Below, in pieces: positions 1-20,300 of a stretch of DNA of 46,582 bases. Both the position numbers and the translations under genes were made by a program. Position 1 is the first letter of the stretch; each line of letters opens with the position of its first letter. This stretch comes from Polyangia bacterium (GTDB lineage Bacteria; Myxococcota_A; Polyangia; Polyangiales; Sandaracinaceae), in contig JAUHXR010000029.1 of NCBI GenBank assembly GCA_030426845.1, forward strand, positions 1-46,582. Direction: 5' to 3'. A model generated the notes under the pieces. That model saw only the letters and a program-made list of their open reading frames with translations. It ran no database searches and was not told the origin of the DNA.

Positions 1-333
1 GTCACCCGCCGCGGCCCCAGACGCGCCCCGACCACTGGCCTCGCCGCCGCCGACGACCGCGACCGTGCCATCAGCGCCGGCCTCGTCGGGCTGGTCGCCG
101 GCGGCGCGGCCGGCGGCCGTCGCCCCACCGCGCTCGGCGCCGCCATCGGCGCGCGCCGCGAGCGCCTCACCCCCCTCGCCCGCCTCGCCGCCCGTCGCGC
201 CGTCGGCCGCGCCAGCCACGGCCTCGGTCGACCCCGCCGCCCGCAGAACCAGCGCGCCGCGCCCCACCCAGCCGAGGCCGAAGCCGAGGACGAGCGCGGC
301 CAGCCCGACCGCGAAGATGCGTCGGTCCTTCAT
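1..333 (-). CDS. Membrane-anchored low-complexity protein, C-terminus beyond window
   Basis: The ATG at 333 overlaps the TGA of the upstream M16-like gene (ATGA), so translation is probably coupled. The frame stays open for 111 codons to base 1. The protein begins MKDRR and then has one hydrophobic segment (about residues 6-22, IFAVGLAALVLGFGLGW), which reads as an uncleaved N-terminal anchor. It continues as an Ala/Gly/Glu/Asp-rich, probably disordered linker with no recognisable domain in the visible part. The topology (short basic N-terminus, one membrane segment, long linker) suggests a periplasmic domain further on. It is the last visible gene of the gpmI-M16-M16 operon. Function is unknown. 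The call rests on the start overlap, the open frame and the strong G/C third-position bias. Confidence 0.7.
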   Translation of the reverse strand, partial: MKDRRIFAVGLAALVLGFGLGWVGRGALVLRAAGSTEAVAGAADGATGGEAGEGGEALAARADGGAERGGATAAGRAAGDQPDEAGADGTVAVVGGGEASGRGASGAAAGD

Positions 334-1909
334 CGGTCGAACATCTCGTTGACGGGCACCACGGTGATGCGCTCGCGCGGGATACCGAGCGGGTACGCGA
401 CGATCTGTCGGTCGTCCTCCTGGACGCGCGCGCTGACCTCGCTCTGGTAGGTCACCGGCGAGGCCGCCTCGGTCGCGATCGCCTCGGCGAGCCCCTCCGC
501 GTCCGAGGCCACCGCCGCGATCGAGAGCCGGCCCGGATCGAGGTGACGGCTCAGCGCGGCGTTGAGCTGCTCCACCGTGAGCTCGCGCCAGGCCGCGCGG
601 AGCCGCTCGAGGTACGGCGCGTCCACGCCGTAGAAGGCGTCGTCCATCGCGTAGCCGAGGCGACGGCTGGCCGTCTGGAGGTAGAGCGCGAAGTAGTTCT
701 CCGCGAACGTGCGCACGTGATCGAGCTGCGCCTGGGTCAGGCCCTCGGCCGCGAGGCGCCGCAGCTCGCGCACCGCGAGGCGGATGGCGAAGTGCGCGGT
801 CTCGGGTCGCAGCGGCCGCAGCCAGATGGAGAAGTACTGCTGGCGCCGCGCGTCGTTCGGGACGGGGAAGCGCGACCAGCCCTCCTGGGTGAAGTGCTCG
901 GCGTAGGCGTAGTCGCCGTAGTTGAGGCCGCGCTCGCCGCGGATCTCCTGCATGAGGCGCCCGACGAACTGCCGGTGCTGGCCGAGCCACGCGGTCGCGA
1001 GGAGCACCGCGGGGTAGTCGGGGTGATCGCGGGTGAGGTCGTAGGCGAAGCCCATCGAGACCGCGACCGCCCGCGCGTCCGGCTTGTGCACGATCAAGAC
1101 CCGCGGCGCGGTCACCTCCGGGGGCGCCGGCAGCTCCGCGCGGCCGAGGCACGCGTCGCCGGTGAGCCGCCCGACGTCGCGCTCGACCCGGGCCGCGAAG
1201 CCCTCGGGGACGTCGCCGGTGATGCCGATCGTGGCGCGCCCCGCGCAGAAGAGCTGCCCGCGGTGCGCCCGCGCGTCGTCCACGCGCACGCGGCGGAGCC
1301 CGGCCTCGGTGCCGACCGCCGGGTGACCGTAGGGGTGACCCTCGTAGAGCATCGCCTGGAGCGCCTGCTTGCCGAGCTCCTCGTCGCGCGCGCTGCGCAG
1401 GTCGACGGTGAGCGCGTTGAGCGCCTGGTCGCGCACCCGCGCGAAGTCCGCCTCGCCCATCCGCGGCCGCGTGAGCACGTCGCGGAGCAGCGGGTAGAAC
1501 TCCTCGAGGTGGTCGCGGTGGACCTGGCCGACGAACGCCGTCTCGTCGCGCGAGACGAACGCGCCGATCGAGGCCGCCATCGGGTAGAGCCGATCGCTGA
1601 GCTCGGCGTAGCTGAGCTCGCCCGCGCCGCCCTCGGCCATGAGCGTCGCCGTGAGCTGGGTGAGGCCCTCGCGGCCGGGCGCGTCCGCGGCCGAGCCGGC
1701 GTCGAAGGCGACGCGCAGGGTCACCACCGGCGACGCGTTGCGGTCCACGATCACGCGAGGCCCGTCCGCGAGCGGCTCGCGGCGGCGCGGCGCGTCGCCG
1801 GCCAGGGTGTGGTCCGCGCGATCCTCGAGCCGCGGGTACTCGCGCGGCGCGGGGCTCGCGCCGCCGCAGCTCGTGAGCGCGAGGAGCGCCCCGGCAACGA
1901 CCGCGCGCC

Positions 1910-1913
<4 letters not shown>
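330..1913 (-). CDS. M16-family peptidase-like lipoprotein, zinc site lost
   Basis: A protein of 527 aa from a GTG at 1913 that overlaps the TGA of the preceding M16 gene (GTGA). The N-terminus (RRAVVAGALLALTSCGG) is a lipoprotein signal with a Cys after LTS. The body has the M16 layout: a beta strand of the type VTLRVAFDAGSAADAPGREGL, then two halves. The position where active M16 enzymes carry HxxEH reads GLTQLTATLMAEGG, so the zinc ligands are absent. Bacterial M16B enzymes often work as a pair of one catalytic and one non-catalytic subunit, and the gene just upstream encodes the catalytic type. I infer that this is the inactive partner of an envelope-associated peptidase complex. Confidence 0.85.
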
Positions 1914-3336
<1,423 letters not shown>

Positions 3337-3340
<4 letters not shown>

Positions 3341-4989
3341 CGGACCTCCAGGAAGCCGGGGTCGTAGCCCTCCGGCGGGGCGAAGCCGAGCAGGAACAGG
3401 AGCGAGGCGGCGACGCTGGTGAGGCCGCGTGCGCCGCCGCCCGCGATCGCGAGCGAGGCCCCCGGCGCGTAGACGTGGCAGGGGACGGGGTTGAGGGTGT
3501 GGCTGGTCTTGGCCTTGAACGAGCCGTCCGGCTTGCGCTGCGGCTCGCCGGTCTTCTTGTCGAGCTCGTACATCAGGTCGGCGTTGCCGTGATCGGCGGT
3601 GACGAGCAGCGCGCCGTCGAGCCGACGGATGACGGGCAGGAGCCGTCCGAGGCACAGGTCCACGGCCTCGACCGCGAGGATCGCCGCGTCGCGCACCCCG
3701 GTGTGGCCGACCATGTCGCCGTTCGCGTAGTTGACGCGCGCGTGGCGGTGCCGGCCGGTCTCGAGCTCGTCGATGAGGCGGTCGGTGATCTCCGCCGCCT
3801 TCATCCAGGGGCGCTCCTCGAAGGGCCGCCGGTCGCTCTTGATCTCGACGTAGGTCTCGAGCCCCGGGGCGAAGGGATCGGTGCGGTTGCCGTTCCAGAA
3901 GTAGGTCACGTGGCCGTACTTCTGGGTCTCGCTGATCGCGAGCTGGCTGACCCCGCTCGCCGCGAGGTGCTCGCCGAGGCTGCCGTCGATCTTGGGGGGC
4001 TCGACGAGGAAGTGGCGCGGCAGGTGGAGGTCGCCGTCGTACTGCATCATCCCCGCGTAGAACACGTCGGGGCGTGGGCCACGGTCGAACGCGTCGAAGT
4101 CGTCCTCCTCGAACGCCCGCGTGATCTCGAGCGCGCGGTCGCCCCGGAAGTTGAAGAAGAGCACCGCCGCGCCGTCGCGGATCGGGCCGACCGGGCCGTC
4201 GTCGTCCGCGATCACGAAGCCGGGCAGGTCCTGGTCGATCTTGCCCGTGCGCTCGCGCAGGGTCTCGACCGCCTCGCGCAGGCTCCGGAAGCGCTCGCCC
4301 TCACCGCGCACGTGGAGCTGCCAGCCGCGCTCGACCATGTCCCAGTCGGCCTCGTAGCGGTCCATCGTCACGATCATCCGCCCGCCGCCCGACGCGACGC
4401 GGAAGTCGCGCTCGGCGCTCTCGTTGATCTCGGCGAGCACCCGCTCGAGCTGGTCGACGTACTCGAGCGCGCTGGTCTCGGGGACGTCGCGTCCGTCGAG
4501 GAGCGCGTGCACGCGGGCCTTCGAGACGCCCTCGTTCGCTGCGCGCCGCAGCAGCGCGAAGAGGTGATCGACGTGGCTGTGCACGTTGCCGTCGCTCAGG
4601 AGCCCGAGGAGGTGCAGCGGCTCGCCGCTCTCCTTCACCCGGGCGATCGCGCGGCGCCAGGCATCGCCCTCGAAGAGCGCGCCCGAGGCGATGGCCTGGC
4701 CGACGAGCTTCGCCCCCTGGTCGAACACGCGCCCCGCGCCGAGCGCGTTGTGGCCGACCTCGCTGTTGCCCATGTCATCGTCGCTCGGCAGCCCGACCGC
4801 GGTGCCGTGCGCGGTGAGCGCGAGGGTCGGCGCCTCTCGCGCGAGCCGGTCGAGGTGCGGGGTGCGCGCGAGCCACACCGCGTCGGACTCGTCCCGCCGC
4901 CCGATGCCGACGCCGTCCATCACGACGCAGACGACGGGCCCCTTCACGCCGGAGAACTGGGGGTGGGCTCGGAGCGAGAGGTCGGCCAT
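3337..4989 (-). CDS. gpmI: 2,3-bisphosphoglycerate-independent phosphoglycerate mutase
   Basis: 550 aa. This cytosolic glycolytic enzyme interconverts 3- and 2-phosphoglycerate using two Mn ions in an alkaline-phosphatase-type fold. Seen in the sequence: the N-terminal metal motif VVCVVMDGVGIG; the DDDMGNSEVGHNALGAGRV segment containing the catalytic Ser; the LLSDGNVHSH segment; FFNFRGDRA; and the C-terminal metal sites (ANGDMVGHTG, TADHGNAD, SHTLNPVPCHVY). Length is slightly above the usual ~510-515 aa. The start at MADLS is followed directly by the conserved domain. Its stop overlaps the start of the M16 peptidase gene, an unusual partner for a glycolytic gene and probably only an operon convenience. 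Confidence 0.97.
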
Positions 4990-5053: not shown

Positions 5054-6148
5054 TCAACCCTCGGCCGGCCCCTCGCCGAGGTCGCGGCGGGCGGCGTAGA
5101 GCGCCTTCCAGGCCGCGCCCCCGGGGCCGCGCACACGCTGGGCGAGGTAGCGGCGGAGGCGCGCGAGGTCGTCGGGGTCCTTGGCCACCGCGCCCGCGAG
5201 GTGGGCGACCAGGTCGCCGGGGGTGGCCGGGCCGCTGCCCCCGAAGTGCGCGGCCACCCCGACCGCCTGCGCGACCGCGACGCACTCCGCGGTCGACATC
5301 GCGGCGCTCATCCGGTCGCTCGAGGCCCCACCCTCCGGGTCGCCCGCGCGCAGCTCGCGGAACACCGTGACGAGCACCTCGAGCACGTCGCCTGGCAACC
5401 CCTCGGGCACCCCGCTCCGCGCGAGCAGCCGCGTCGAGCGCTCCTCCACCAGCGCGAGCTCCTCGTCGAGGTCGGCGATCGGGAAGACCGTCTCGAAGTT
5501 GAAGCGCCGCTTGAGGGCCGCGCTCATCTCGTGCACCCCGCGGTCACGCGTGTTCGCGGTCGCGATCACGTTGAAGCCCTCCCGCGCGAAGAGCGTGCCG
5601 TCGTCGCCGAGCTCCGGGATCGCGAGCGCCCGCTCGCCGAGCACCGGCAGCAACGTATCTTGCACCTCGAGCGGGCACCGCGTGATCTCCTCGAAGCGCA
5701 CCACGCGGCCGGTGCGCATCCCGGTGTGGACCGGCCCCGGCACGAGCGCGCGCGGCGACGGCCCCTCGGCGACGAGGAGCGCGTAGTTCCACCCGTAGCG
5801 CACCTGGTCCTCGGTCGTCGCGGCCCCGCCCTGGATCGTGAGCGTGGAGCAGCCGCTGATGGCGGCCGCGAGCAGCTCACTCAGCCACGACTTGGCCACC
5901 CCGGGCTCGCCGATCAGGAGCAGCCCGCGCTCGGTCGCGAGCGTGACCATCGCCCGATCCACGAGGCTCGGCGGGGCGACGATCTTGCGGGAGATCGACC
6001 GCGAGGCGTCGCCGAGGACGAAGCGGCGCACCGCCGGCATCGACAGGCGCCACCCCGGCGGGCGGGGGCCCTCGTCGGACGCGGCCAGCCGCGCGAGCTC
6101 GTCGGCGTGCTCTACCTCGGCGGGCGGGCGCTGGATCGGCGCGCTCAT
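5054..6148 (-). CDS. MoxR-type AAA+ ATPase
   Basis: 364 aa. Walker A GEPGVAKS is at residues 80-87, a Walker B-like strand VVRFEEI at 149-155, sensor-1 VIATANT with Asn near 199, and the Arg-finger region KRRFNF near 213-218. Spacing and motifs fit the MoxR clade, whose members usually act as chaperones or remodellers with a vWA partner. Here the vWA partner (9830-10954) is on the opposite strand, beyond a double-FHA gene that starts 91 bp away in the divergent direction. A DUF5682 and a SWIM gene complete the set. gpmI follows 64 bp downstream on the same strand, so the two may share a transcript. The client protein is unknown. Confidence 0.93.
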   Translation of the reverse strand: MSAPIQRPPAEVEHADELARLAASDEGPRPPGWRLSMPAVRRFVLGDASRSISRKIVAPPSLVDRAMVTLATERGLLLIGEPGVAKSWLSELLAAAISGCSTLTIQGGAATTEDQVRYGWNYALLVAEGPSPRALVPGPVHTGMRTGRVVRFEEITRCPLEVQDTLLPVLGERALAIPELGDDGTLFAREGFNVIATANTRDRGVHEMSAALKRRFNFETVFPIADLDEELALVEERSTRLLARSGVPEGLPGDVLEVLVTVFRELRAGDPEGGASSDRMSAAMSTAECVAVAQAVGVAAHFGGSGPATPGDLVAHLAGAVAKDPDDLARLRRYLAQRVRGPGGAAWKALYAARRDLGEGPAEG

Positions 6149-6239
6149 CGGCGAACTCTACCAGCCGGCCAGGGAGAGAGCGCCGAGCTGGCGCGCCGGC
6201 GAGGGAAGCGCCCGCGCGGCCGCAGCGTAGGTTGCCTCG

Positions 6240-7241
6240 ATGCCCGAGACCCCCACCCCCCGGGACCCGCTCGGGACGCGGCCCAACGCGAACACCCTGC
6301 TTCCGTCCGCGTGGACGCCCCCCGCGCTCGACCACATCGAGGCCGGCCTCACGCTCGCGCTCCGCACCCTCCGCGAGGCCGCGGCCCCGCCCGACGTGCC
6401 GGGGGTCCACGTCTTCGCGGTGCGCGACGGGCGCATCGAGGGCCGGTTCCTCCGCGCGGGGGCGGAGGAGTACCTGGTGATCGGGCGGCACGAGCGCTGC
6501 GACCTGCGGCTCGCCGCCGACCCCGCGATCTCGCTCCGGCACCTCGTGGCGCGGGTGGTCACGCTCCGGGACGGGAGCGCCGCGCTGCGGCTCCTCGACC
6601 TCTCGACCCGCTGCCCGCTCGTGCTGAGCGACGGCACGCTCCAGCGCTCGCTCGTCGGCACGGGCCCCTTCGCGGTCGGCGTCGGCTCCTACGTGATCGG
6701 CGGGGTGCCCCACGACCTCGACCGCTACGTCCGCGGCCCCGCCCCGACGGGGACCCGCCCCGGCGGGCCCTACCGCACCGCGCCCCCCGTGGTCGAGCGC
6801 GCGAGCAGCGTCCCCGACCACGCGCTCGAGTCGCCGGCCGGCCAGCGGCGCTCGCGGATCACGCTCATGCCGAGCAGCCGGATGGTCACCAGCCTCTCCG
6901 GCCTCGCGGTCGACGCCTGCGCGCAGGTCACCCTCTCGCGAGCCAGCGGCGGGAGCGGAGCGGTCGTCCTCGACCGCGAGAGCCTGGAGCTCGGGGTGCT
7001 CGTCGGCCGCGCCGAGCGCTGCCTCGACGGCCTCCGCGCGCTGATGACCATGAGCATCTCGCGCGTGCACCTCATGCTCCTCGCGGACGGTGACCGCACC
7101 TTCGCGCTCGACGTGGCCTCCACGCAGGGCACCTACGAGCGCGGGCGGATGCGCCGCGCGGTGGAGCTCACGGGACGCACCTGCGCGCTGTCGCTCGGGC
7201 AGTACGACGCGGTGCAGCTGGTCTGGCGCGCGCTCGGGTGA
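6240..7241 (+). CDS. Protein with two FHA domains
   Basis: 333 aa from ATG at 6240. The first FHA domain covers about residues 70-150 (LVIGRHERCDLRL, then an SLRHLVARV strand). The second covers about 235-330 (GVLVGRAERCLDG, SISRVHLMLL, TQGTYERGR, SLGQYDAVQLVW). The GR.ERCD/L and SxxH elements are the classic phosphothreonine-binding loops. The linker between them is Pro/Gly/Ser-rich and contains several Thr and Ser. FHA proteins dock phosphorylated partners, so this gene could place the neighbouring MoxR-vWA machinery under Ser/Thr kinase control. It lies head-to-head with the MoxR gene and 216 bp upstream of the DUF5682 gene on the same strand. Confidence 0.9.
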   Translation: MPETPTPRDPLGTRPNANTLLPSAWTPPALDHIEAGLTLALRTLREAAAPPDVPGVHVFAVRDGRIEGRFLRAGAEEYLVIGRHERCDLRLAADPAISLRHLVARVVTLRDGSAALRLLDLSTRCPLVLSDGTLQRSLVGTGPFAVGVGSYVIGGVPHDLDRYVRGPAPTGTRPGGPYRTAPPVVERASSVPDHALESPAGQRRSRITLMPSSRMVTSLSGLAVDACAQVTLSRASGGSGAVVLDRESLELGVLVGRAERCLDGLRALMTMSISRVHLMLLADGDRTFALDVASTQGTYERGRMRRAVELTGRTCALSLGQYDAVQLVWRALG

Positions 7242-7292
7242 TCCGCGCACCGAGCGGATTGGCGTGCTGGATGATCGGCGCACCGAGCTGAT
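7240..7292. promoter_or_regulatory. Pair of 20-bp direct repeats ahead of the DUF5682 operon
   Basis: Two near-identical 20-mers, GATCCGCGCACCGAGCGGAT at 7240-7259 and GATCGGCGCACCGAGCTGAT at 7273-7292, share 18 of 20 bases and start 33 bp (about three helical turns) apart. Each has short inverted ends (ATCCG/CGGAT in the first, GATC/GATC across the second). A weaker GATCCGCGCGCAC copy follows at 7400. They occupy the only sizeable gap (7242-7457) between the FHA gene and the DUF5682-vWA-SWIM genes. An operator is plausible, but no regulator is identified. Confidence 0.35.
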
Positions 7293-7457
7293 CGAGGCGT
7301 TGGCTGCGGCTGCGCGGGCTCGGCCCTGCGCGCCTCGGGAGAGCGGGCACGGGCGCGGGCACGGGGAGCTCGGCGCCGCGCGCCTTGCTCACCTGGGCTG
7401 ATCCGCGCGCACGCGTGCCCGACCCCCGACGCCCGCGCTTGGCTGCAGCGACGGCCC

Positions 7458-9833
7458 GTGGTGTGCTGGCCCACGGTGGGTCGACTCCACGTCCTCGGCA
7501 TCCGGCACCACAGCCCGGCCTGCGCCCGGCTGGTGCGACGGGCGCTGTCCCGACACCGGCCGTCGATCGTGCTCGTCGAGGGTCCGGCCGACGCCAACGA
7601 CCGCGTGCCCGAGCTCGGCCTCGCCCACCGGCCGCCGATCGCGATCTTCAGCCACTGGACCGAAGGCCCCGGGGTGAGCGGCGCGAGCTGGACCCCCTTC
7701 GCCGACTTCTCCCCGGAGTGGGTCGCGATCCGCGGCGGGCTGCGGCGCGGCGCGGAGGTGCGCCTGATCGATCTGCCGAGCTGGGCGCTCCCGCCGGGGC
7801 CCTCGCGGCGACCGGGCGCACGCTACCTCGCCCGGCTCGCGCGCGAGCTGGGCGCAGACGGCTACGACGCGCTGTGGGACCACCTCTTCGAGCTCCCGCT
7901 CGCGCCCGACGCGCTCGAGGCGCGCCTCGCCCGCTTCTTCGAGGACCTCCGTCGCGCGGATGCCCACGACCAGCGCGCCCGCGAGGACGGCACCCGCGAG
8001 GACGGCGCCCGCGAGGACGCGACCGAGCCCACACCGCGCGCCCGCGAGGCCTTCATGGCCGGACACGTCGCGGCCGCGATGGCGCGCACCGACGGCCCGG
8101 TGCTCGTCGTGTGCGGCGGGCTCCACGCCCCGGCGTTGATCGACGCCTGGCGCGACCTGCCGGCCGAGCCACCCCCGCTCCCCGCCGGGCCGAGCGCGCG
8201 CGGGAGCTACCTCGTGCCGATCACGTTCGCCCAGCTGGATCGCGACGCGGGCTATCGCGCGGGCGTCCCGTCGCCCGGGTTCTACCAGGCGCTGTGGGAG
8301 CGCGGCCCCGAGGCGGCGGGCGACGCGATGCTCGCCGCGGTCATCGCGCGGCTGCGCGAGGGGCGGCGAGGCCCGAGCACCGCAGACCTCATCGCGGCCC
8401 GCGCGAGCGTCGAGCAGCTGCGGCGCATCCGAGGGCACGTCGCCTTGACGCGCGTGGATGTCCTCGACGGGGTCGCCTCGGCCGTCGTGACGAGGGCGCT
8501 CGACGCGCCGCTGCCCTGGACCGCGGCGCGCGCGGGCGCGGCGCCGACCGACCCCACGGTGCTCGCGATGCTCGACGCGCTGCGCGGCGATCGCGCGGGC
8601 CGCCTCGACCCGAGCACCCCGCGGCCGCCCCTGGTCGACGACGCCCACCGCCAGCTCGCGGCGCGCGACCTCGCGCTCGCCCATGGGCCGCACGAGGTCA
8701 CGCTCGATCTGCGCGCGCCCGCCGACCTCGAGACGAGCCGCGTGCTGCACAGGCTCCGCGTGCTGGAGATCCCGGGCGTCGCGCGTCGGCGCGGCCCCGA
8801 CGGACCGGCCGACGCGGCGGTGACCGAGCGGTGGGAGCTGTGGTCGACCCGCGAGACCGAGCGGCGGCTCGCCGAGGCGGCCGCGTGGGGCCCCGACCTC
8901 GCGCGCGCCGCGGCCGCCCGCCTCGCCCACGCGCTCGATGGCGAGGCGGCCCACCTCGAGGCCCTCGCCGGTCACCTGCTCGACGCGGCCCAGATCGGGA
9001 TCGACGCGCTCGACGAGGCCGCGCTGCGCCGCGCGGAGGGCGTCGCGCGCCGGGAGCCCAGGCTCGCTCGACTCGGCCGTGCGCTCGCCCGAACCCTCGC
9101 GCTCTTCCGGCACGACCGCCTGCTCGGCGCAGCCGGCTCCCCCGCGCTCGCCCGGCTCACGCGCGCGATGATCCGACGCGCGCTCTGGCTCGTCGAGGGG
9201 GCGCGCGGCGCGGAGGCACCGACCGATCGCGACGAGCTGCGCGCGCTGGTCGGGATCCGCGACGGGCTACGCGTCGGCCACGCGCTGGGGATCGCGCCCG
9301 AGGAGGTGATCGACGCGCTCGCCCGGGTAGCCCGCGAGCGGCGGTCGCCGCCGGGGCTGCGCGGCGGCGCGATCGGGCTGCTCTGGTCCGTCAACGCCAC
9401 CGACGACGCGGCCGACGACGCGGCCGACGACGTGGCCGTGGCCAACGACGTGGACGACGACGTGGCCGGCCTCGCCCTCGACGCGCTCGGCGCCGCCTCG
9501 CCGCGCACGATCGGCGAGCTGCTCGCCGGCCTCTTCGCCCTCGCGCGCGCCCGCGTCCTCGCCACGCCGGAGGTGATCGCCATCCTCGACCGTCAGCTCG
9601 CCGCGTGGCCGGAGGACGCGTGGCTCGCCGCGCTCCCCTCCCTGCGCCTCGCGTTCACGTACTTCCCGCCCCGCGAGCGCGACGCGATCGCCCGCGCGGT
9701 GAGCGGGCTCCACGGCCGCGCCGTCGCCCGCGAGCCGCTCCCCGCCGACGCGGCCACGATCGCGCGCGGCGAGGCGAGGGAGGCGCGCGTGGACGCCTGG
9801 GTCGCGCGCTACCACCTCGAGGGGCCCCGGTGA
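7458..9833 (+). CDS. DUF5682-family protein of a MoxR/vWA/SWIM cluster
   Basis: 791 aa from GTG at 7458; an alternative GTG at 7476 starts just before the first conserved strand RLHVLGIRHHSP. I recognise it as DUF5682-like by its opening, its size and its position beside vWA and SWIM genes. The N-terminal ~230 residues hold GIRHHSPACARLV, VLVEGPADAND, REAFMAGHV and VVCGGLHAPAL. This order of His, Glu, Arg/Glu and His motifs resembles the TraB/EreA/ChaN superfamily (inference). The rest looks alpha-helical. Two in-frame repeat expansions occur: three REDGx units at 7980-8024 and an Asp-rich stretch near 9402-9466. Its TGA overlaps the GTG of the vWA gene. Biochemical activity is unknown. Confidence 0.85.
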   Translation: MVCWPTVGRLHVLGIRHHSPACARLVRRALSRHRPSIVLVEGPADANDRVPELGLAHRPPIAIFSHWTEGPGVSGASWTPFADFSPEWVAIRGGLRRGAEVRLIDLPSWALPPGPSRRPGARYLARLARELGADGYDALWDHLFELPLAPDALEARLARFFEDLRRADAHDQRAREDGTREDGAREDATEPTPRAREAFMAGHVAAAMARTDGPVLVVCGGLHAPALIDAWRDLPAEPPPLPAGPSARGSYLVPITFAQLDRDAGYRAGVPSPGFYQALWERGPEAAGDAMLAAVIARLREGRRGPSTADLIAARASVEQLRRIRGHVALTRVDVLDGVASAVVTRALDAPLPWTAARAGAAPTDPTVLAMLDALRGDRAGRLDPSTPRPPLVDDAHRQLAARDLALAHGPHEVTLDLRAPADLETSRVLHRLRVLEIPGVARRRGPDGPADAAVTERWELWSTRETERRLAEAAAWGPDLARAAAARLAHALDGEAAHLEALAGHLLDAAQIGIDALDEAALRRAEGVARREPRLARLGRALARTLALFRHDRLLGAAGSPALARLTRAMIRRALWLVEGARGAEAPTDRDELRALVGIRDGLRVGHALGIAPEEVIDALARVARERRSPPGLRGGAIGLLWSVNATDDAADDAADDVAVANDVDDDVAGLALDALGAASPRTIGELLAGLFALARARVLATPEVIAILDRQLAAWPEDAWLAALPSLRLAFTYFPPRERDAIARAVSGLHGRAVAREPLPADAATIARGEAREARVDAWVARYHLEGPR
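7980..8024. repeat. 15-bp in-frame tandem repeat, 3 units
   Basis: Three consecutive CGCGAGGACGGCRCC-type units inside the DUF5682 gene encode REDGT, REDGA and REDAT. The unit length is divisible by three, so gain or loss keeps the reading frame. It sits in a poorly conserved loop just before the REAFMAGHV motif. Confidence 0.8.
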
Positions 9834-10954
9834 CCGATCCGATCGCGCGGTGGCGGCTCGTGCTCGGTGACGCCGCGAGCGGCGCGCTCGGCCCGTGCGA
9901 GACGGACCGCGCGCGCGACGAGGCGCTCGCGTTCCTCTACGACCGCGAGGAGGCCCCGCTCGACGCGGGCCGCCGCGGCGCGACGCCGACGGAGGGCGCG
10001 ACCGACGACCCGAGCCGGCTCGCCGCGCCGCGCTGGCTCGACGACGTGCACCGGCTCTTCCCGCGGGAGGCCGCGCTCCGCCTCGAGCGCGACGCGGTGG
10101 AGCGCTACGGCCTGCTCTCGCTGCTCGAGGACCCCGACGTCCTCGCGCGCGTCGAGCCGAGCCCGACCCTCCTGCGCGCGGTCCTGCGCACCAAACACCT
10201 GATGCGCCCCGAGCTGCTCGCGGCCGCGCGCGCGCTCACCGCGCGGGTGGTGGAGGAGCTCACGGCGCGGCTGCGCCCCGCGCTGCGCGACGCGCTGGCC
10301 GGGCCCCGCCGCGCCGGGGGCGCGCCGCGGCGGGTCGCGCGGAACCTCGACCTCAAGCGCACCGTCCTGACCAACCTGCGCGGGTACGACCCGGCGACCC
10401 GCCGCCTCGTGATCCGCCGCGCCCGCTTCGTCCGGCGCGCGCGCCGCCTCGGCGAGCGGTGGCAGCTCGTGATCCTCGTCGACCAGAGCGGGAGCATGCT
10501 CGGCTCGACCGTCCACGCGGCGGTCACCGCGGCGTGCCTGCACGGCCTCCCCGCGCTGCGCCGCCACCTCGTGACCTTCGACACCTCCGTGGTCGACCTG
10601 ACCGCGCACGTGGACGACCCGGTCGAGCTCTTGATGCGGGTCGCGCTCGGCGGCGGCACCGACATCGCCCAGGCGCTGCGCTACGGCGCGGGCCTCCTCG
10701 AAGATCCGCGGCGCGCGCTCGTCGTCCTGATCAGCGATCTCTACGAGGGCGGCGACCCCGGCCGGGTGGTGCGCCAGGTCGAGGCGCTCCGCGAGCGCGA
10801 GGCGCGAGTCCTCGTCTTGACCGCGCTCGACGAGGAGGCGACCCCGCGATTCGATCGGGACCTCGCGCGCGCGCTCGTCGACGCGGGGGCCGAGGTGGCG
10901 GCCATGACGCCGGCGCAGCTCACCACCCTCGTCGCCGAGGCGGTGGCGGGGTGA
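9830..10954 (+). CDS. vWA-domain protein (CoxE-like MoxR partner)
   Basis: 374 aa. The GTG start at 9830 overlaps the DUF5682 stop (GTGA). The N-terminal ~205 residues are helical and basic at the end ([16 protein letters not shown]). The vWA domain follows from about residue 212. Its metal-ion adhesion site is intact: DQSGSM at 218-223 (DxSxS), Thr in GGGTDIA near 277, and Asp in [11 protein letters not shown] helical N-terminus plus C-terminal vWA is the usual build of proteins that work with MoxR ATPases, presumably bridging the ATPase to its target through bound Mg. Its stop overlaps the GTG of the SWIM gene, so dosage of the three proteins is likely coupled. Confidence 0.93.
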
Positions 10955-12891
10955 CCGGTCAGGATCGCGAGGACCTGCGCGCGCTCGACGACGACGCGCT
11001 CGCCCGGCTCGCGAGCCCCGGGCTGGTCAAGCGCGCGCGGCGCGAGCGCGCCGAGGCGGAGGCGCGCGTGCGGGTCGAGGCCGGCGCGCTGATCGGCGAG
11101 GTGGGCGCGCACCGGGTGGTGGTGGCCGCCGGGGCGGGGCTCGAGGGCGCGACTTGCACCTGCGGCGCCCGGGCCCTCTGCCGGCACGCGCTGATCGCGG
11201 TGATGGCGCTCCGCGACGCGACGCGCGAGGCCCACGATCCGCCGGACGCCGATCCCGCCTCGGAGGCCGCAGCCCTGCCGCCCGCCGACGCGATCGAGCC
11301 GCGCGTCCTCCGCGAGCACCTCGGCACGCTCACGATGCGCCGCGCGGCCCGAGCCCGCGACGCCGGGCTCGTCGCGACCGTGAGGCGGACCGGCGGGCTG
11401 AGCGTGAGCCTGCCGGCGGCCACCGTGCGCTTCCTCGTGCCCGGCGACCTCGCCTACGCGCGGTGCGACTGCCGCGCCCGGCCGCCCTGCCTCCACCTCG
11501 CGCTCGCGACCTGGTCGCTGGAGGAGGCAAGGCGTATAGCCCCGGACGCGGGGTCGGTCGAGGTCGCCCTCGGCCCGCCGCCCACGGTCGCAGCCGGCGC
11601 GCTGGACGAGGCGCGGGCGCTCGCCGAAGAGCTCCTCCTCGGCGGCGCCGACCACGCGGGCCCCGAGCTCGCGGGGCGCTTCGGCCTGGCCCGGCGCGCG
11701 CTCGAGGACGCGGGCCTCCGCTGGCCGCTCGACGCCTGCGCGGAGCTCGAGCGTGCGCTGAGCGCCTACCACGCCCGCGGGGGCGAGCACCGCGTCGAGG
11801 CGGTCGGCGCGCTCCTCACCGAGCTCCACGCGCGGGGACGCGCAGCTCGCTCGACCGACGGCGCGATCCGGGAGGGAGCGCTCGGGGCGCGCGAGCCGGC
11901 CGAGACCGCGCTCGCCGAGCTCCGGCTCGTCAGCTTGGGCGCGCGGGTGCGGCGCGTGACCGACGAGGACGGCGACGCGCGGGCCGAGGTGGAGGTGTTC
12001 TTCGTGGACCCGGGCGCGCCCGGAGCGTTCGTCTTGCGGCGCGCGTGGCCGGTCTCGCCCGACGAGCGCGGGCCGCAGCTCGCGCGGCGCGCGGCGCTGC
12101 GCGGCGTCACCCTCGGCGCGCTCGCGGCCGGCCAGGTCGTCACCCGGATCGCCCGGCGGCGGGCCGACCGCGGCCTGGAGCTCGGTCCCGGCGCGCGCGG
12201 CGACACCTCGGTCACCCCCCAGCGCGGCGCGTGGGGGACGCTCCACCCCGGCCTCCTGCCGCCGAGCGTCGACGCGGCGCTCGCCGAGCTGCGCGCGCGC
12301 CCGCCGCGCCTCGTGCGGCCGCGCGTCCTGGCCGACGCGGTGCGGGTGATCGCGGTGCGCCGCGTGCGCGACCTCACCTACGACCCGGCGGAGCGCACCC
12401 TCACCGCCGAGCTCGAGGCCGAGTGCGGTGGACACGTCACCTTGACACTCGAGCGCAGGCCCGGTCGCGAAGAGGCGGCCCACGCGGCGGTGGACGCGCT
12501 CCGGCGCGAGCCGCGCTTCGTGAGCGGCGCCGTCCGCCGCGACGGGGCCGCGCTGACGCTCGACCCGCTCGCGATCGTGACCGATCGGGTGGTGGTGCTC
12601 GACCTCGAGCCCGCCGGCGACGCCCGGCTCCCGGCCCGCGCCGCGCCGCGCCCGGCCGATCCGATCGAGGCCGCGCTCCGCGACGCGCGGCGCGCGCTCG
12701 ACGACGCGGCCCACCACGGCCTCCGTCACCTGTCCCCCGCGTGGCGAGACGGCGCGGGCGCGATCGCCGACCGCCTCGCCGACCTCGGGCTGGCCACCAC
12801 CGCGGCCCGCCTCCGCGCGGTGGGCGCCGCCCGCTCCGCCGAGGCGTGGCTCGAGGCCTCGACCCGGATCCGGCTCGCCCTCGAGGCGTGA
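10951..12891 (+). CDS. Twin SWIM zinc-finger protein
   Basis: 646 aa from GTG at 10951, overlapping the vWA stop. Two complete SWIM motifs of identical spacing (CxCx5CxH) are present: C69/C71/C77/H79 in [13 protein letters not shown] and C172/C174/C180/H182 in [18 protein letters not shown] fingers are zinc modules linked to DNA or protein binding. The remaining ~460 residues are helical with some beta stretches, and I could not assign a fold. In other bacteria SWIM proteins sit in the same neighbourhood as DUF5682, vWA and MoxR genes (from memory), so it is probably a structural or targeting subunit of that assembly. The gene ends just before the 42-bp repeat array. Confidence 0.9.
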
Positions 12892-13113: not shown

Positions 13114-13502
13114 CGAGCGGGTCTGCCTCGGTCCAACCGAGCCTCTCGGCGACGCACCCGAGGCTTCGCGGCAGGCATCCCGAGCCTCGAGCGTCGCGCC
13201 CGACGGCCAGGAGAGTCGCGCCCGGGGCCTCCCCGCTCGGACCCCGCGGCCCGACGAGCGCGCCTTCGACTCGGGCGCGCGCGTCCTCGGCTCGAGGGAC
13301 TGGCGTCCCTCGCGAAGAGATTCACGCCCTTCGCTTCGAGCTTCACGCCCTCGGCTTCAGAGCTCGATGTTCCAACTCGGGTGCGTCGCCGAGTCGACCG
13401 GGTGCGTGGTCGGGAGCCGAGGGCGTGGGTTCCGCGAGGCCCGGGCGAGAGCTTCGGCGGGAGTGCAGCTCGTCGTGGACGTTGCGGGCGGAGTCGGAAC
13501 CC

Positions 13503-13622
<120 letters not shown>

Positions 13623-13693
13623 TCGGTCTCACTGGCCATGATCAAGCGAGCGCTCGGCTGCGTGGCTGGGTCAGGTCACGCGGGTCCCCGGGT

Positions 13694-13751
13694 GCGCCTT
13701 CGTCTGCGGAGCGCAAGCAAACTGCGGCTTGCGCACCGCAGACGAAGGCGC
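13694..13751. promoter_or_regulatory. 25-bp-arm inverted repeat just upstream of the four-helix-bundle gene
   Basis: Left arm 13694-13718 (GCGCCTTCGTCTGCGG, one mismatch, GCGCAAGC) pairs with right arm 13727-13751 across an 8-nt loop (AAACTGCG). Only one of 25 positions is unpaired. The structure ends 11 nt before the ATG at 13763, so in RNA it would sit against the ribosome-binding region. A terminator is less likely, because no U-run follows and a gene begins at once. Translational control of the gene, or a processing/recognition hairpin of a mobile element, are both possible. Confidence 0.75.
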
Positions 13752-16609: not shown

Positions 16610-17209
16610 TCAGGCGGGGACCAACGAAGAGTCATACGCCACCTCGCTCCTCACCCGACGCGGGACCTCGGCGAGCGGGCGCCACGGCGGCTCGCCCGAC
16701 GCGCGCGACGTGAATCCGGCGTGGGTCACCCGCGTCTCGCCCCCGCGCGGGCCGATCCCCGGCGCGAGCGCCAGCACCCCGACCGGGTCGCCGGCGCCGA
16801 ACGCGCGCACCAGCCGAACGACCTGGAGCCGCTCGTCGGGCGCGCCGCGTCGCCAGCCGCGCGGCGCGAGGACCGCGTCGAGCGTGACCGCGTCGATCAG
16901 GCCGACCGCGAGGGGGAGCCGATCCCCGTCGGCCTCCAGCGCGGTCGGTCGCGCGAGCTGATCGAAGGGCGAGCGCAGCCGGCGCGCGGCGAAGTGATCC
17001 CCCCAGGCGCCGAGGACCTCGGGCCCCAGCTCGGCCGCGTGCGCCACGTACACCGCGCCCCGCGCCTCCGCCGGCGCGCCCGTCGCGTCGATCGGCCCCT
17101 CCTCCGCGACGCGAAACGTCACCTCCCCGACGCGGAGCACCACGCGCGCGAGCAGCGCGGGCGGCAGGGCGGCGAGGACGCGAGGGTCGAGCGGGCGCGC
17201 CTCCGCCAT
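16610..17209 (-). CDS. Small protein resembling part of DUF4132
   Basis: 199 aa from ATG at 17209; an in-frame GTG at 17269 would add 20 residues. The segment VLGAWGDHFAARRLRSPFDQ resembles the W...L......PF.Q stretch I recall from the large DUF4132 (MolR-like) proteins. The end (PLAEVPRRVRSEVAYD) also resembles their SEV..D terminal strand. DUF4132 proteins are usually far longer, so this would be a stand-alone C-terminal domain or a remnant. Codon use is normal for the region, which argues for a living gene. It is divergent from the PknK-like kinase. The assignment is tentative. Confidence 0.6.
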   Translation of the reverse strand: MAEARPLDPRVLAALPPALLARVVLRVGEVTFRVAEEGPIDATGAPAEARGAVYVAHAAELGPEVLGAWGDHFAARRLRSPFDQLARPTALEADGDRLPLAVGLIDAVTLDAVLAPRGWRRGAPDERLQVVRLVRAFGAGDPVGVLALAPGIGPRGGETRVTHAGFTSRASGEPPWRPLAEVPRRVRSEVAYDSSLVPA

Positions 17210-17348
17210 CGCGCGCTCGAGCCGGCGCACGTGACGCCGACGCTCGAATCCAGCTCCCCCTTCGTCCACGCCCCGGAGGATAAGCGCGCGGGGGAGGCCC
17301 CCGACACCCGAGCGCCCCGCGCGCCGGCTTCTGGCCCATACTCGGCCC

Positions 17349-20300
17349 GTGCGCGAAGGGGACACGATCGCCGAGCGGTTCTTCCTGCGCCGCGAGGCCG
17401 GGCGCGGCGGCATGGGGGTCGTCTACCGGGCCGACGACAAGGTGAGCGGCGGCGCGATCGCGCTGAAGCTCCTCCAGGGCCGCGACGCGGTGGACGCGGC
17501 GCGGTTCCAGCGCGAGGCCACGCTCCTGCGCGAGCTCGCGCACCCGCACGTCGTCGGCTACGTCGATCACGGGGTCACAGACGACGGCGATCTCTTCCTC
17601 GCGATGGAGTGGCTCGAGGGCCGGACGCTCTCCGATCGGATCGCGGAGGGGCCGCTCGCCGCCGACGAGGCGCTCAGCGTGATGCGTGGCGCGGCGGCCG
17701 GGCTCGGCGCGGCCCACGCGCGGGGCGTGATCCACCGCGACGTGAAACCCGCAAACCTGTTTCTGGTCGACGGCGATCCGACCCGCCTGAAGGTGCTCGA
17801 CTTCGGCCTCGCGCGCGGGGTCGGCGCGGGCCACACGCTGACCCAGACGGGGACGGTCATGGGCACGCCGTTCTACATGGCCCCGGAGCAGGCGAGCGCG
17901 TCCGCCCTCGTCGACGCGCGGGCCGACGTGTACGCGCTCGGCGCGGTGCTCTACCACGCGCTCGCCGGCCGGCCGCCGTTCCGCAGCGAGAGCCTGATGG
18001 CGGTGCTCGCGGCGATCCTCCTGGAGGACCCGGTCGACGTGCGCGAGCGCGCCCGCGCGCCCATGCCCGAGCCGCTCGCCGCGCTCTGCATGGAGCTCCT
18101 CCAGAAGTCGCGCGACGCGAGGCCGGCCGACGGCCGCGCGCTCCTCGCCCGCCTCGAGCGGCTCGAGCGCACCGTCGACCGCCCGAGCGCGTCACCGCCC
18201 GCGCTCACCGATCGTGAGCAGCGCGTGCAGTGCCTCGTCCTCGCCGAGGGCGCGGTCGGGGGGCCACGCCCGGCTCGGCTCGACCTCGCGGCCACCCTCC
18301 CGCCGGGCGCCGACGACGAGGCGGGGCGGCTGCGCGCCGCGGTGGAGGCGCGCGGCGGCGCGATCGAGGTGCTCGCCGACGGCTCGATCGTCGCGCGCGC
18401 CGCGCCGGATGGGACGCCGACCGATCAGGCGGTGCGCGCCGCCGGCTGCGCGCTCGCGATGCGCGAGGTCGCACCCCATATCCCCCTCGCGGTGGTCGCG
18501 GGGCGCGGCCAGCTCGGCGGGCCGGTGCCGGTCGGCGAGGTGATCGAGCGGGGGCTCGCGCTCCTCGCCGGTGACGCAGGCTCGCGCACGCTCCGCGGCG
18601 GCGCGCTCGGCGGCCCGCCGCCGCCGCCGGGTCCGCTGCCGATCCGCCTCGACGCCACGATGGCCGGCCTCGTCGAGGACCGCTTCGTCGTCGAGCGGGG
18701 CGCGGGCGGCGCGGAGCTCGGCCCGGAGCGCGCGAGCCCCACCACCTCGCGGCGGCTGCGCGGCGCGCCGAGCCCCTGCGTCGGCCGGCGCCGCGAGCTC
18801 GGGACGCTGACGGCGATCTACGACGAGTGCGCGGAGGAGCCGGTCGCGCGCGCGGTCGTGATCACCGCGGCCGCCGGGCTCGGCAAGACCCGCCTCCTCC
18901 ACGAGCTGCTCGACGCGCTCGAAGATCACGAGGAGGCGCCGCGGGTGTGGCGCGCGGGGGGCGATCCGGTCGCGGCCGGCTCGCCGTTCGGCCTGCTCGG
19001 CCAGCTCCTGCGCGCGTTCGCGTCGATCGCCGAGGGCGAGCCGCTCCCCGCGCGGCGCGACAAGCTCCTCGCCGCGGTCGGCGCCCGGGTGCAGGGCGAG
19101 CCGGGCCGGGTCCTCGCGGCGCGGCTCGGGGAGCTGTGCCGTGTACCGTTCGAGGCCACCGCGTCCATGCCCCCGGACGACCCGCGCCTCCGCGGCGACG
19201 CGATGCGTGACGCGTGGCTGTCGCTCCTCGACGCCGAGCTCGCGCGCGGCCCGCTCGTGATCGCGCTCGACGACCTCCAGTGGGGTGACCGGCCGTCCCT
19301 CGCCTACCTCGACGACGCGCTGCGCACCCTCGAGGACCGGCCGCTCTGCGTCATCGCGGCCGGCCGCCCCGAGATCGACGAGCGGCTCGAGGGGCTCTGG
19401 GCCGAGCGCGACGCGCTCTCGATGCGCCTCGCCCGGCTCCGCCCGCGCGCCGCCGAGCGCCTCGTGCGGCACGCCTTCGAGGGGATCGACGGCGACCTCG
19501 CGCGCGCCCTCGTCGAGCGGGCCGACGGCAACCCCTTCTTCCTCGAGGAGCTGATCCGCGCGGTCGCCGAGGGCGGGCCGCGCACCGAGCTGCCGACCAC
19601 CGTGCTCGGGATGGTCGAGGCGCGGCTCGGCGAGCTCGAGGGGCCGACCCGTCGGGTCCTCCGCGCGGCGAGCGTGTTCGGCCGGCTGTTCTGGCGCGGC
19701 GGCGTCGAGGCCCTCCTCGGGGGCGACGCGCGCGCGCCGGACGTGGACGAGCACCTCTCGGTCCTGCGGCGGCGCGAGCTCGTCGCGCGTCAAGATCCTT
19801 CTCGATTCGAGGGTGAGCCGCAGCTCGCGTTCAGGAACGAGCTGACGCGCGAGGCGGCCTACGCGACGCTCACCGACGACGACCGCGCGCTCGGCCACCG
19901 CCTCGCGGCACGCTGGCTCGAGGCGGCGGGGGAGCGCGACGCGGTGCGGCTCGCCGAGCACCACGCGCGCGGCGGCGACGACGCGGCGGCGGCGGGGTGG
20001 CTCGCGGTCGGCGCGGCCCAGGCGCTCGAGGGCGACGACCTCGAGGCCTGCGTCGCGCGCGGCGCGCGGGCGCTGGACGCGATCGACCCGGCGCAGGCGG
20101 GCGAGCTCCACGTCACCCTCGCCGACGCGCACCGCTGGCGAGGCGCCTACCCGGACGCGATGCGCCACGCCGCCCAGGCAGCCGAGGCGCTGCCCGAGGG
20201 GACGCGGCCGTGGTTCCGCGCGCTGGGCGTGCTCTTCGCGGCGGCGGGCCGGCTCGGGCGGCACGACGAGGCGGAGCGCTGGCGCGGGCGCGCGATGGAG

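What the first reader, a model, noticed from the sequence alone, without database searches (positions are those of the whole stretch)
5054..12891. Phospho-sensing MoxR / DUF5682 / vWA / twin-SWIM locus
A MoxR AAA+ ATPase, a DUF5682 protein, a vWA protein with intact metal site and a double-SWIM protein are clustered, and a double-FHA protein sits between the ATPase and the rest. The last three genes overlap by 4 nt. MoxR-vWA pairs are known AAA+ remodelling systems and DUF5682/SWIM partners recur in bacteria (from memory), but the biochemical role is not known to me. The FHA gene adds a phospho-threonine input, so this may be a kinase-gated AAA+ machine.
Basis: partly seen in the sequence, partly recalled or inferred. 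Interest (0 to 1): 0.78.

Follow-up and report, generated by a model that had tools for sequence, protein, structure and literature searches.

The report
Rearranged YehLMPQ operon beside FHA gene
This is a myxobacterium's copy of the uncharacterised yehLMPQ gene set that E. coli also carries; the signalling (FHA) gene in its middle is most likely a neighbour moved there by a local inversion, and the set's 'unknown' protein appears to carry an enzyme-type (TraB/TIKI) domain, which makes the set testable.

Summary
The five genes are at the stated coordinates and both 4-nt overlaps are confirmed. Four of them are a copy of E. coli yehL-yehM-yehP-yehQ (61/37/49/28% identity, near full length). The phospho-sensing idea is not supported. 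Where MoxR and DUF5682 were both seen in fetched relatives (64 and 79 loci), MoxR always lies directly upstream on the same strand; only the window has it inverted. G001 has iPGM-FHA-three genes-MoxR-DUF5682, so one inversion plus loss of three genes gives the window order. FHA and DUF5682 are linked in 2 of 29 genomes of the order that have both; FHA proteins occur in 5 of 74 and 0 of 80 yeh stretches. The commoner fifth partner is DUF4132 (YehI-like): 69 of 79 named loci, 10 of 67 in the order.

New here: the N-terminal domain of DUF5682/YehM looks like a TraB/TIKI-superfamily domain. The ten best VIA-aligned PDB chains (six distinct proteins) are all of that kind, hhalign to TraB/PrgY gives 97.8%, and H10/E34/R189/H216 are kept wherever covered. 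Preferred mechanism: a MoxR-VWA AAA+ pair that remodels or loads a TIKI-type hydrolase. The domain is well supported; the mechanism is inferred.

The parts
5054..6148 (-). MoxR AAA+ ATPase, YehL orthologue (364 aa), inverted relative to the relatives seen
   Evidence: Pfam AAA_5; 61% identity to E. coli YehL over 355 columns; orientation in relatives
6240..7241 (+). double-FHA protein (333 aa); most likely a neighbour, not part of the system
   Evidence: Pfam FHA; family of 39 aligned members, window included; synteny
7458..9833 (+). DUF5682 protein, YehM orthologue (791 aa from 7458; models use 7479)
   Evidence: Pfam PF18934; 37% identity to YehM over 764 columns
7479..8246 (+). TraB/TIKI-superfamily domain of the DUF5682 protein, H10 E34 D98 R189 E190 H216
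   Evidence: AlphaFold2 model ma812991f2a80, pLDDT 91.9; VIA-align rows 1-10; hhalign 97.8% to TraB/PrgY; residue census
8697..9776 (+). C-terminal mostly helical part, perhaps HEAT/ARM-like
   Evidence: model mf68337cb82f7 and VIA-align rows for residues 407-766; Z below the level at which the tool trusts helical repeats
9830..10954 (+). VWA (CoxE type) protein, YehP orthologue, metal site intact by eye
   Evidence: Pfam VWA_CoxE; 49% identity to YehP over 373 columns
10951..12891 (+). twin SWIM zinc-finger protein, YehQ orthologue
   Evidence: Pfam SWIM, two stretches; 28% identity to YehQ over 625 columns
16610..17413 (-). short DUF4132 protein, perhaps a remnant or short form of the YehI-type partner
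   Evidence: Pfam DUF4132 E 2.3e-9; one of two DUF4132 places in the genome; also past SWIM in G001 and G006
3337..4989 (-). iPGM gene, anchor that shows the rearrangement (not part of the system)

Best explanation
A YehLMPQ locus in a Sandaracinaceae-type myxobacterium. Core machine: YehL, a MoxR-type AAA+ ATPase (presumably a ring), works with YehP, a VWA adaptor, to remodel or activate YehM. YehM consists of a TraB/TIKI-superfamily, hydrolase-like domain followed by a long helical part that could grip a substrate or partner. YehQ, with two SWIM zinc sites, would bring the complex to its target, and a DUF4132 protein is a frequent fifth partner. In this lineage an inversion of the block between iPGM and yehM turned yehL round and left a free-standing double-FHA gene between yehL and yehM, so FHA is most likely a bystander. 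Shown: gene identities, conserved order, opposite orientation in relatives, TraB/TIKI-like fold (predicted) with the conserved residues. Inferred: the inversion event, ring and adaptor roles, hydrolase activity, direction of control, role of SWIM and DUF4132, FHA having no role.
For: YehLMPQ identity: blastp 61/37/49/28% near full length, operon in E. coli K-12. Conserved order: 64 of 64 and 79 of 79 loci with both genes. Inversion: G001 order M16-M16-iPGM-FHA-FA_hydroxylase-GNAT-AAA_16-MoxR-DUF5682 against window M16-M16-iPGM-MoxR(-)-FHA(+)-DUF5682, with the same anchors on both sides. FHA not a regular partner; the FHA profile found 30 of 30 of the strongest FHA places of this genome. TIKI: VIA-align rows 1-10 at Z 10.6 to 7.4, next row 5.9; best hit in the viral library a TraB protein, E 1.2e-4; hhalign 97.8% TraB/PrgY and 81.9% ChaN with motifs in register, controls MoxR, VWA, SWIM, FHA 0.1-0.9%; H10 in 70 of 70, E34 in 71 of 71, D98, R189 and H216 in 72 of 72 proteins that cover the place, of 76 examined. 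DUF4132: within 1.5 kb upstream of MoxR in 69 of 79 named loci.
Against: hhalign to the Ere family was only 2.7% and to GumN-type TraB 52.8%; with the narrower first profiles all but PrgY-type TraB were at the level of the controls. No sequence match to any solved structure and no Foldseek hit at E 0.001 or better in the PDB; only six of the ten VIA rows reach Z 8. The second Glu of the RRSP/Ere active site (two residues before the first His) is not there (I or V at position 8 in most members). No interaction or activity is shown. SWIM was found in only 16 of 74 order stretches and DUF4132 directly upstream in only 10 of 67 order loci with MoxR, so the full set is not universal. FHA and yeh are linked in two genera, and a kinase gene lies near both.
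Confidence: 0.55

Rival explanations
1. One reading: a kinase phosphorylates a partner, the double-FHA protein reads the phospho-threonine and so gates the MoxR-VWA machine.
For: FHA is next to MoxR, sharing a 91-bp divergent region; both FHA domains of the window protein keep the Arg, Ser and His of the phosphate pocket, and domain 2 is near canonical in the family; FHA is also near yeh in G001; a Ser/Thr kinase gene lies 4.5 kb downstream in the window and near yeh in G001.
Against: Close together in 2 of 29 genomes with both; FHA in 5 of 74 and 0 of 80 yeh stretches; kinases in 13 of 74 and 2 of 80 yeh stretches against 13 of 40 double-FHA stretches and 1 of 8 iPGM stretches (stretch lengths differ); arrangement explained by an inversion; the genome has 72 FHA-domain matches, so a chance neighbour is not remarkable; Asn of the pocket is Gln in domain 2 and absent in domain 1.
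Confidence: 0.08
2. The TIKI-like domain is not an enzyme but a cofactor-binding or structural platform (as haem-binding ChaN), and the MoxR-VWA pair matures some other enzyme or complex, as other MoxR-VWA pairs do.
For: ChaN is a close structural match (Z 10.0; hhalign 81.9%); MoxR proteins are described as chaperones for maturation of complexes (PMC3893208, passages).
Against: His, Glu and Arg that hydrolase members use are kept in every DUF5682 protein that covers them, which a mere platform would not need.
Confidence: 0.25
3. A conflict or defence system: a MoxR-VWA switch holding a TIKI effector in check.
For: MoxR-VWA ternary systems are proposed conflict systems (PMC7159879, passages); some TIKI-superfamily proteins act as effectors (PMC6254334, passages).
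Against: No PADLOC match at E 0.01 for any of the five proteins; no Pfam match above cut-off to the partners of the published ternary systems; the gene order is the same across the named loci.
Confidence: 0.15
4. The window order is an assembly error: the genome is in 538 contigs and the inverted block may be misjoined.
For: Every relative seen has the other orientation; fragmented genome.
Against: No long, well-matched inverted repeat joins the two junctions, and G001 also has FHA close by on the same contig. Reads were not available.
Confidence: 0.1

Closest known systems
Escherichia coli K-12 yehL-yehM-yehP-yehQ operon (NC_000913.3 2204596-2210944)
   Same: All four proteins are homologous near full length; M-P-Q order and direction; P/Q overlap of 4 nt; a DUF4132 gene (yehI) upstream in E. 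coli, a short DUF4132 gene downstream here
   Different: yehL inverted here, a double-FHA gene between yehL and yehM, and DUF4132 short, on the other side and opposite strand
MoxR-VWA AAA+ pairs (RavA-ViaA, NorQ and CoxD systems; YehL is one of seven MoxR subfamilies, PMC3893208, passages)
   Same: AAA+ of MoxR type in one cluster with a CoxE-type VWA gene
   Different: Partner set is DUF5682, SWIM and often DUF4132; I have no biochemical data
TraB/PrgY family and wider TIKI superfamily (ChaN, Ere, RRSP, HopBA1)
   Same: Predicted fold and the (G/P)-x-x-H ... E ... D ... R ... G-x-x-H signature in register
   Different: Fused to some 530 further, mostly helical residues, encoded with a MoxR-VWA pair; lacks the first Glu of RRSP/Ere
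MoxR-VWA ternary conflict systems (VMAP, iSTAND, FtsH, beta-propeller; PMC7159879, passages)
   Same: MoxR-VWA pair plus a third protein
   Different: No Pfam match above cut-off to those third components; that paper's main text does not contain DUF5682, YehL, SWIM or TraB

Membership tests
YehLMPQ gene set | orthologues of YehL, YehM, YehP and YehQ in one cluster | tested here: met
   blastp 61/37/49/28% near full length; Pfam
YehLMPQ gene set | yehL directly upstream of yehM on the same strand | tested here: not met
   MoxR on minus strand, FHA gene between; met in 64 of 64 and 79 of 79 relatives with both genes. This marks a rearranged member, not a different family
YehLMPQ gene set | YehI-type DUF4132 gene nearby (frequent, not universal) | tested here: inconclusive
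   short DUF4132 protein 3.7 kb downstream on the other strand; upstream of MoxR in 69 of 79 named and 10 of 67 order loci
MoxR-VWA AAA+ systems | MoxR AAA+ with ATPase motifs and a VWA partner with metal site | tested here: met
   Pfam; motifs by eye
MoxR-VWA AAA+ systems | physical interaction and ATPase stimulation | not testable with these tools
   needs protein work
TraB/TIKI superfamily (DUF5682 N-terminal domain) | TIKI fold | tested here: met
   on a predicted model: VIA-align rows 1-10 all of the superfamily, six distinct proteins, Z 10.6-7.4 (six rows at 8 or more), rmsd 3.3-4.8, next row 5.9; no Foldseek hit at E 0.001 in PDB; viral TraB E 1.2e-4
TraB/TIKI superfamily (DUF5682 N-terminal domain) | two G-x-x-H motifs, conserved Glu and basic residue | tested here: met
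   first Gly is Pro in some divergent members. The motif definition is partly recalled; His, Glu and basic residue are in PMC6254334
TraB/TIKI superfamily (DUF5682 N-terminal domain) | second catalytic Glu two residues before first His (RRSP type) | tested here: not met
   I or V, once A, at position 8-9 region, no Glu; the fetched TraB/PrgY proteins also lack it (GTAH), so this argues only against RRSP/Ere membership
TraB/TIKI superfamily (DUF5682 N-terminal domain) | hydrolase activity | not testable with these tools
   no assay
MoxR-VWA ternary conflict systems | VMAP, iSTAND, FtsH or beta-propeller component | tested here: not met
   no such Pfam match above cut-off in the five proteins; bpMoxR on MoxR 16.7 bits against cut-off 27
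phospho-threonine-reading FHA proteins | Arg, Ser, His and Asn of the phosphate pocket (recalled) | tested here: inconclusive
   Arg, Ser, His kept in both window domains; Asn is Gln in domain 2, absent in domain 1

The most novel reading that the evidence does not exclude
YehM/DUF5682 is an ATP-gated TIKI-superfamily hydrolase: a MoxR-VWA machine loads or opens a TraB-type active site that a helical arm and the SWIM and DUF4132 proteins present to a specific target. This would be a distinct type of regulated hydrolase spread from myxobacteria and actinobacteria to E. coli; in the Sandaracinaceae lineage the neighbouring FHA and kinase genes may even have been recruited to it.
Probability: 0.3. 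Interest if true: 0.78.

Novelty: new variant of a known kind. Interest (0 to 1): 0.5.

Why it matters
YehL is one of seven named MoxR subfamilies, yet I saw no functional study of its operon in the listings and the 25 shown of 650 (many of which match an author name). Assigning DUF5682 to the TraB/TIKI superfamily gives concrete residues to change and an activity to assay, in a set that E. coli K-12 also carries. It also shows how a single-genome neighbour can mislead: the FHA gene is most likely there through an inversion, while the more recurrent partner (DUF4132) lay outside the flagged interval.

Tried and rejected
Kinase as a conserved yeh partner: rejected (13 of 74 and 2 of 80 stretches). 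FHA tied to iPGM in general: rejected; in the 8 other iPGM stretches of the family no yeh gene or close FHA relative appeared (matches over 70 bits only), and the more distant FHA relatives of those genomes lie on other contigs or over 1.4 Mb away. A conserved neighbour of the double-FHA family: none shared by most of the 40 stretches; an STPK or PP2C gene in some. Viral relatives of FHA: none. Repeats at the inversion junctions: none convincing. Promoter and terminator patterns and Rfam: nothing. PADLOC: nothing at E 0.01. Sequence match of DUF5682 (profile) or SWIM (single protein) to solved structures: none. VWA gave only weak hits to phosphoribosyltransferases (E 0.39 and worse). Fold search with the whole DUF5682 model was filled by helical proteins, so the N-terminal domain was folded alone. 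First hhalign with narrow profiles: 46.9% to PrgY-type TraB, 2.9% to a mixed TraB set, 0.2% GumN-type, 0.8% Ere, with the MoxR control at 1.3%; the 97.8% came after widening both profiles. On the widened profiles the accepted relatives score each other 69.0% (PrgY-GumN), 39.4% (PrgY-ChaN) and 94.3% (GumN-ChaN).

Limits of the counts: the 74 order stretches were chosen from the match rows; not every row was fetched, and some are short contigs or remote DUF5682 paralogues, so absence there is weak. Four named loci (L143, L145, L148, L164) have the contig lengths of stretches also in the order set (L124, L031, L121, L032). The FHA profile check (30 of 30) used the strongest 30 of 72 places, some in the same gene. 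The Pfam-based genome search did not list the window's own FHA gene.
Full report
What is there. The last three overlap by 4 nt each. MoxR is divergent from FHA (91 bp between), and FHA ends 216 bp before DUF5682. Codon-position G+C supports the MoxR, FHA and DUF5682 frames. The window is one whole contig of a 9.4-Mb genome in 538 contigs.

What it is. E. coli K-12 carries yehL (MoxR), yehM, yehP (VWA) and yehQ (SWIM) in that order, with yehI (DUF4132) upstream. The window proteins match them at 61, 37, 49 and 28% identity near full length; the FHA protein has no meaningful match among them. In 74 fetched stretches of the order and 80 named loci from GTDB genomes, MoxR and DUF5682 are both seen in 64 and 79; in all of these MoxR lies directly upstream on the same strand. 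VWA is seen in 59 of 74 and 80 of 80, SWIM in 16 of 74 and 77 of 80. Most order stretches without SWIM hold a more divergent MoxR and DUF5682 (bit scores), so they may be a separate group.

The FHA gene. The double-FHA protein belongs to a real family of the order (matches in 52 of 183 genomes; 39 members aligned). Comparing by eye, 29 genomes match both this family and DUF5682. They lie close together only in the window genome and in G001. In the eight genomes whose matches lie on one chromosome-sized contig (G008, G079, G139, G156, G158, G173, G174, G175) the nearest pair is about 181 kb apart (G139); in fragmented genomes linkage across contig ends cannot be excluded. Profiles of the two FHA domains find FHA proteins in 5 of 74 order stretches (L034, which is G001, and L098, L107, L108, L130, each at least 2.7 kb from the yeh genes) and in 0 of 80 named loci; the same profiles find 30 of 30 of the strongest FHA places in the window's genome.

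Why it sits there. G001 has M16-M16-iPGM(-)-FHA(-)-fatty acid hydroxylase(-)-GNAT(+)-AAA_16(+)-MoxR(+)-DUF5682(+), and another contig, which begins inside DUF5682, goes on with VWA-SWIM-DUF4132(-)-kinase(+). The window has M16-M16-iPGM(-)-MoxR(-)-FHA(+)-DUF5682(+)-VWA-SWIM, then DUF4132(-) and the same kinase (62% identity). Turning round the stretch between iPGM and DUF5682, with loss of three genes, gives one from the other. Because the other relatives have the MoxR-DUF5682 order of G001, the window order is the derived one. In eight further genomes of the family iPGM has neither FHA nor yeh genes beside it. This reading is inference from synteny; a misassembly cannot be excluded.

FHA and yeh are neighbours in two genera; a kinase gene lies near both loci; the Arg, Ser and His of the FHA pocket are kept in both window domains. 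Against it, kinases are found in only 13 of 74 and 2 of 80 yeh stretches but in 13 of 40 double-FHA stretches (stretch lengths differ), and the genome holds 72 FHA-domain matches.

A more recurrent fifth partner. A DUF4132 protein (YehI-like; one examined has a WGR domain) lies within 1.5 kb upstream of MoxR in 69 of 79 named loci, on the same strand in 68, and in 10 of the 67 order loci with MoxR. It appears in 1 of 40 double-FHA stretches. The window has one of only two DUF4132 places in its genome 3.7 kb past SWIM, as a short form on the other strand; G001 and G006 also have it past SWIM.

DUF5682 is a TraB/TIKI-type protein. AlphaFold2 on 44 aligned sequences gave pLDDT 87.9; the N-terminal 256 residues alone gave 91.9. 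VIA-align of that domain puts ten chains on top, with Z 10.6 to 7.4, six of them at 8 or more; the next, a phosphatase, has 5.9. They are six distinct proteins: a ciliate complex IV subunit (8b6h, 8bqs, 7w5z; the dimer contains a TraB-family protein according to a figure legend in PMC10060162, and that it is this chain is my inference), ChaN 2g5g, HopBA1 5t09, a bacterial toxin 6a7h and 6a8j (its residue numbers fit RRSP of PMC6254334; my inference), 2qgm (titled succinoglycan biosynthesis protein; an Ere-like Bcr protein from recall) and EreC 6xcs and 6xcq. RRSP, HopBA1, Bcr135, ChaN and PMT are named as TIKI superfamily, and linked to Ere, in PMC6254334 (passages). Foldseek itself gave no PDB hit at E 0.001 but a viral TraB protein at 1.2e-4. 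As an independent test, hhalign of a widened DUF5682 profile gave 97.8% to TraB/PrgY over 189 columns, 81.9% to ChaN, 52.8% to GumN-type, 2.7% to Ere, and 0.1-0.9% to four control families; narrower first profiles had given 46.9% to PrgY-type TraB and control-level scores to the rest. The alignment pairs GIRHHS with GTAHIS, VEGP with VELD, IDLP with VDR, RE with RD and GGLH with GAxH. H10 is kept in 70 of 70 proteins covering it, E34 in 71 of 71, and D98, R189 and H216 in 72 of 72, out of 76 examined; R158, invariant in the closer set, is not. The C-terminal part is helical and looks HEAT/ARM-like, but at scores that the tool warns may mean only a common arrangement.

How it most likely works. 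MoxR ATPases act with VWA partners and are thought to mature or activate specific complexes (PMC3893208, passages). By analogy YehL and YehP would act on YehM, with YehQ and the DUF4132 protein giving target choice. That YehM is the client, that it hydrolyses something, and what the target is, are inference.

Literature. No paper in the library holds 'DUF5682'; 'SWIM zinc finger' with 'MoxR' gives none; two papers hold at least two of yehL, yehM, yehP, yehQ, one a genome report and one a strain collection (listing only). A search for any one of the four names matched 650 papers, of which I saw 25 listed, many apparently matching an author name. The main text of the large MoxR-VWA conflict-system paper PMC7159879 holds none of YehL, SWIM, TraB or DUF5682. 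Most subscription journals are not held, so novelty of the TIKI assignment is not proven; the superfamily paper of 2013 was not held.

Verdict.

Noticed in passing
16610-17413: Short DUF4132 protein on the minus strand; DUF4132 is the frequent upstream partner of yehL elsewhere (69 of 79 named loci).
   Followed up: partly
17349-21239: 1296-aa Ser/Thr kinase with AAA_16 and TPR regions, conserved near yeh in G001.
   Followed up: partly
330-4989: Two M16 peptidase genes and an iPGM gene in a row on the minus strand; the same M16-M16-iPGM order is seen in G001 and in 5 of 8 other family stretches.
   Followed up: partly
L038 (G000:C412): A second, very divergent DUF5682 protein in the same genome, frame 888 aa; its motif columns did not align.
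   Followed up: no
7240-7300: Two similar 20-mers, GATCCGCGCACCGAGCGGAT and GATCGGCGCACCGAGCTGAT, at and just after the FHA stop codon (read).
   Followed up: no
13400-13700: Low-complexity stretch read as a Glu-Pro or Gly-Ala repeat in two frames.
   Followed up: no
L099, L100: In G081 and G082 an iPGM gene lies 3.7 kb from a divergent yeh cluster as well; may be chance.
   Followed up: no
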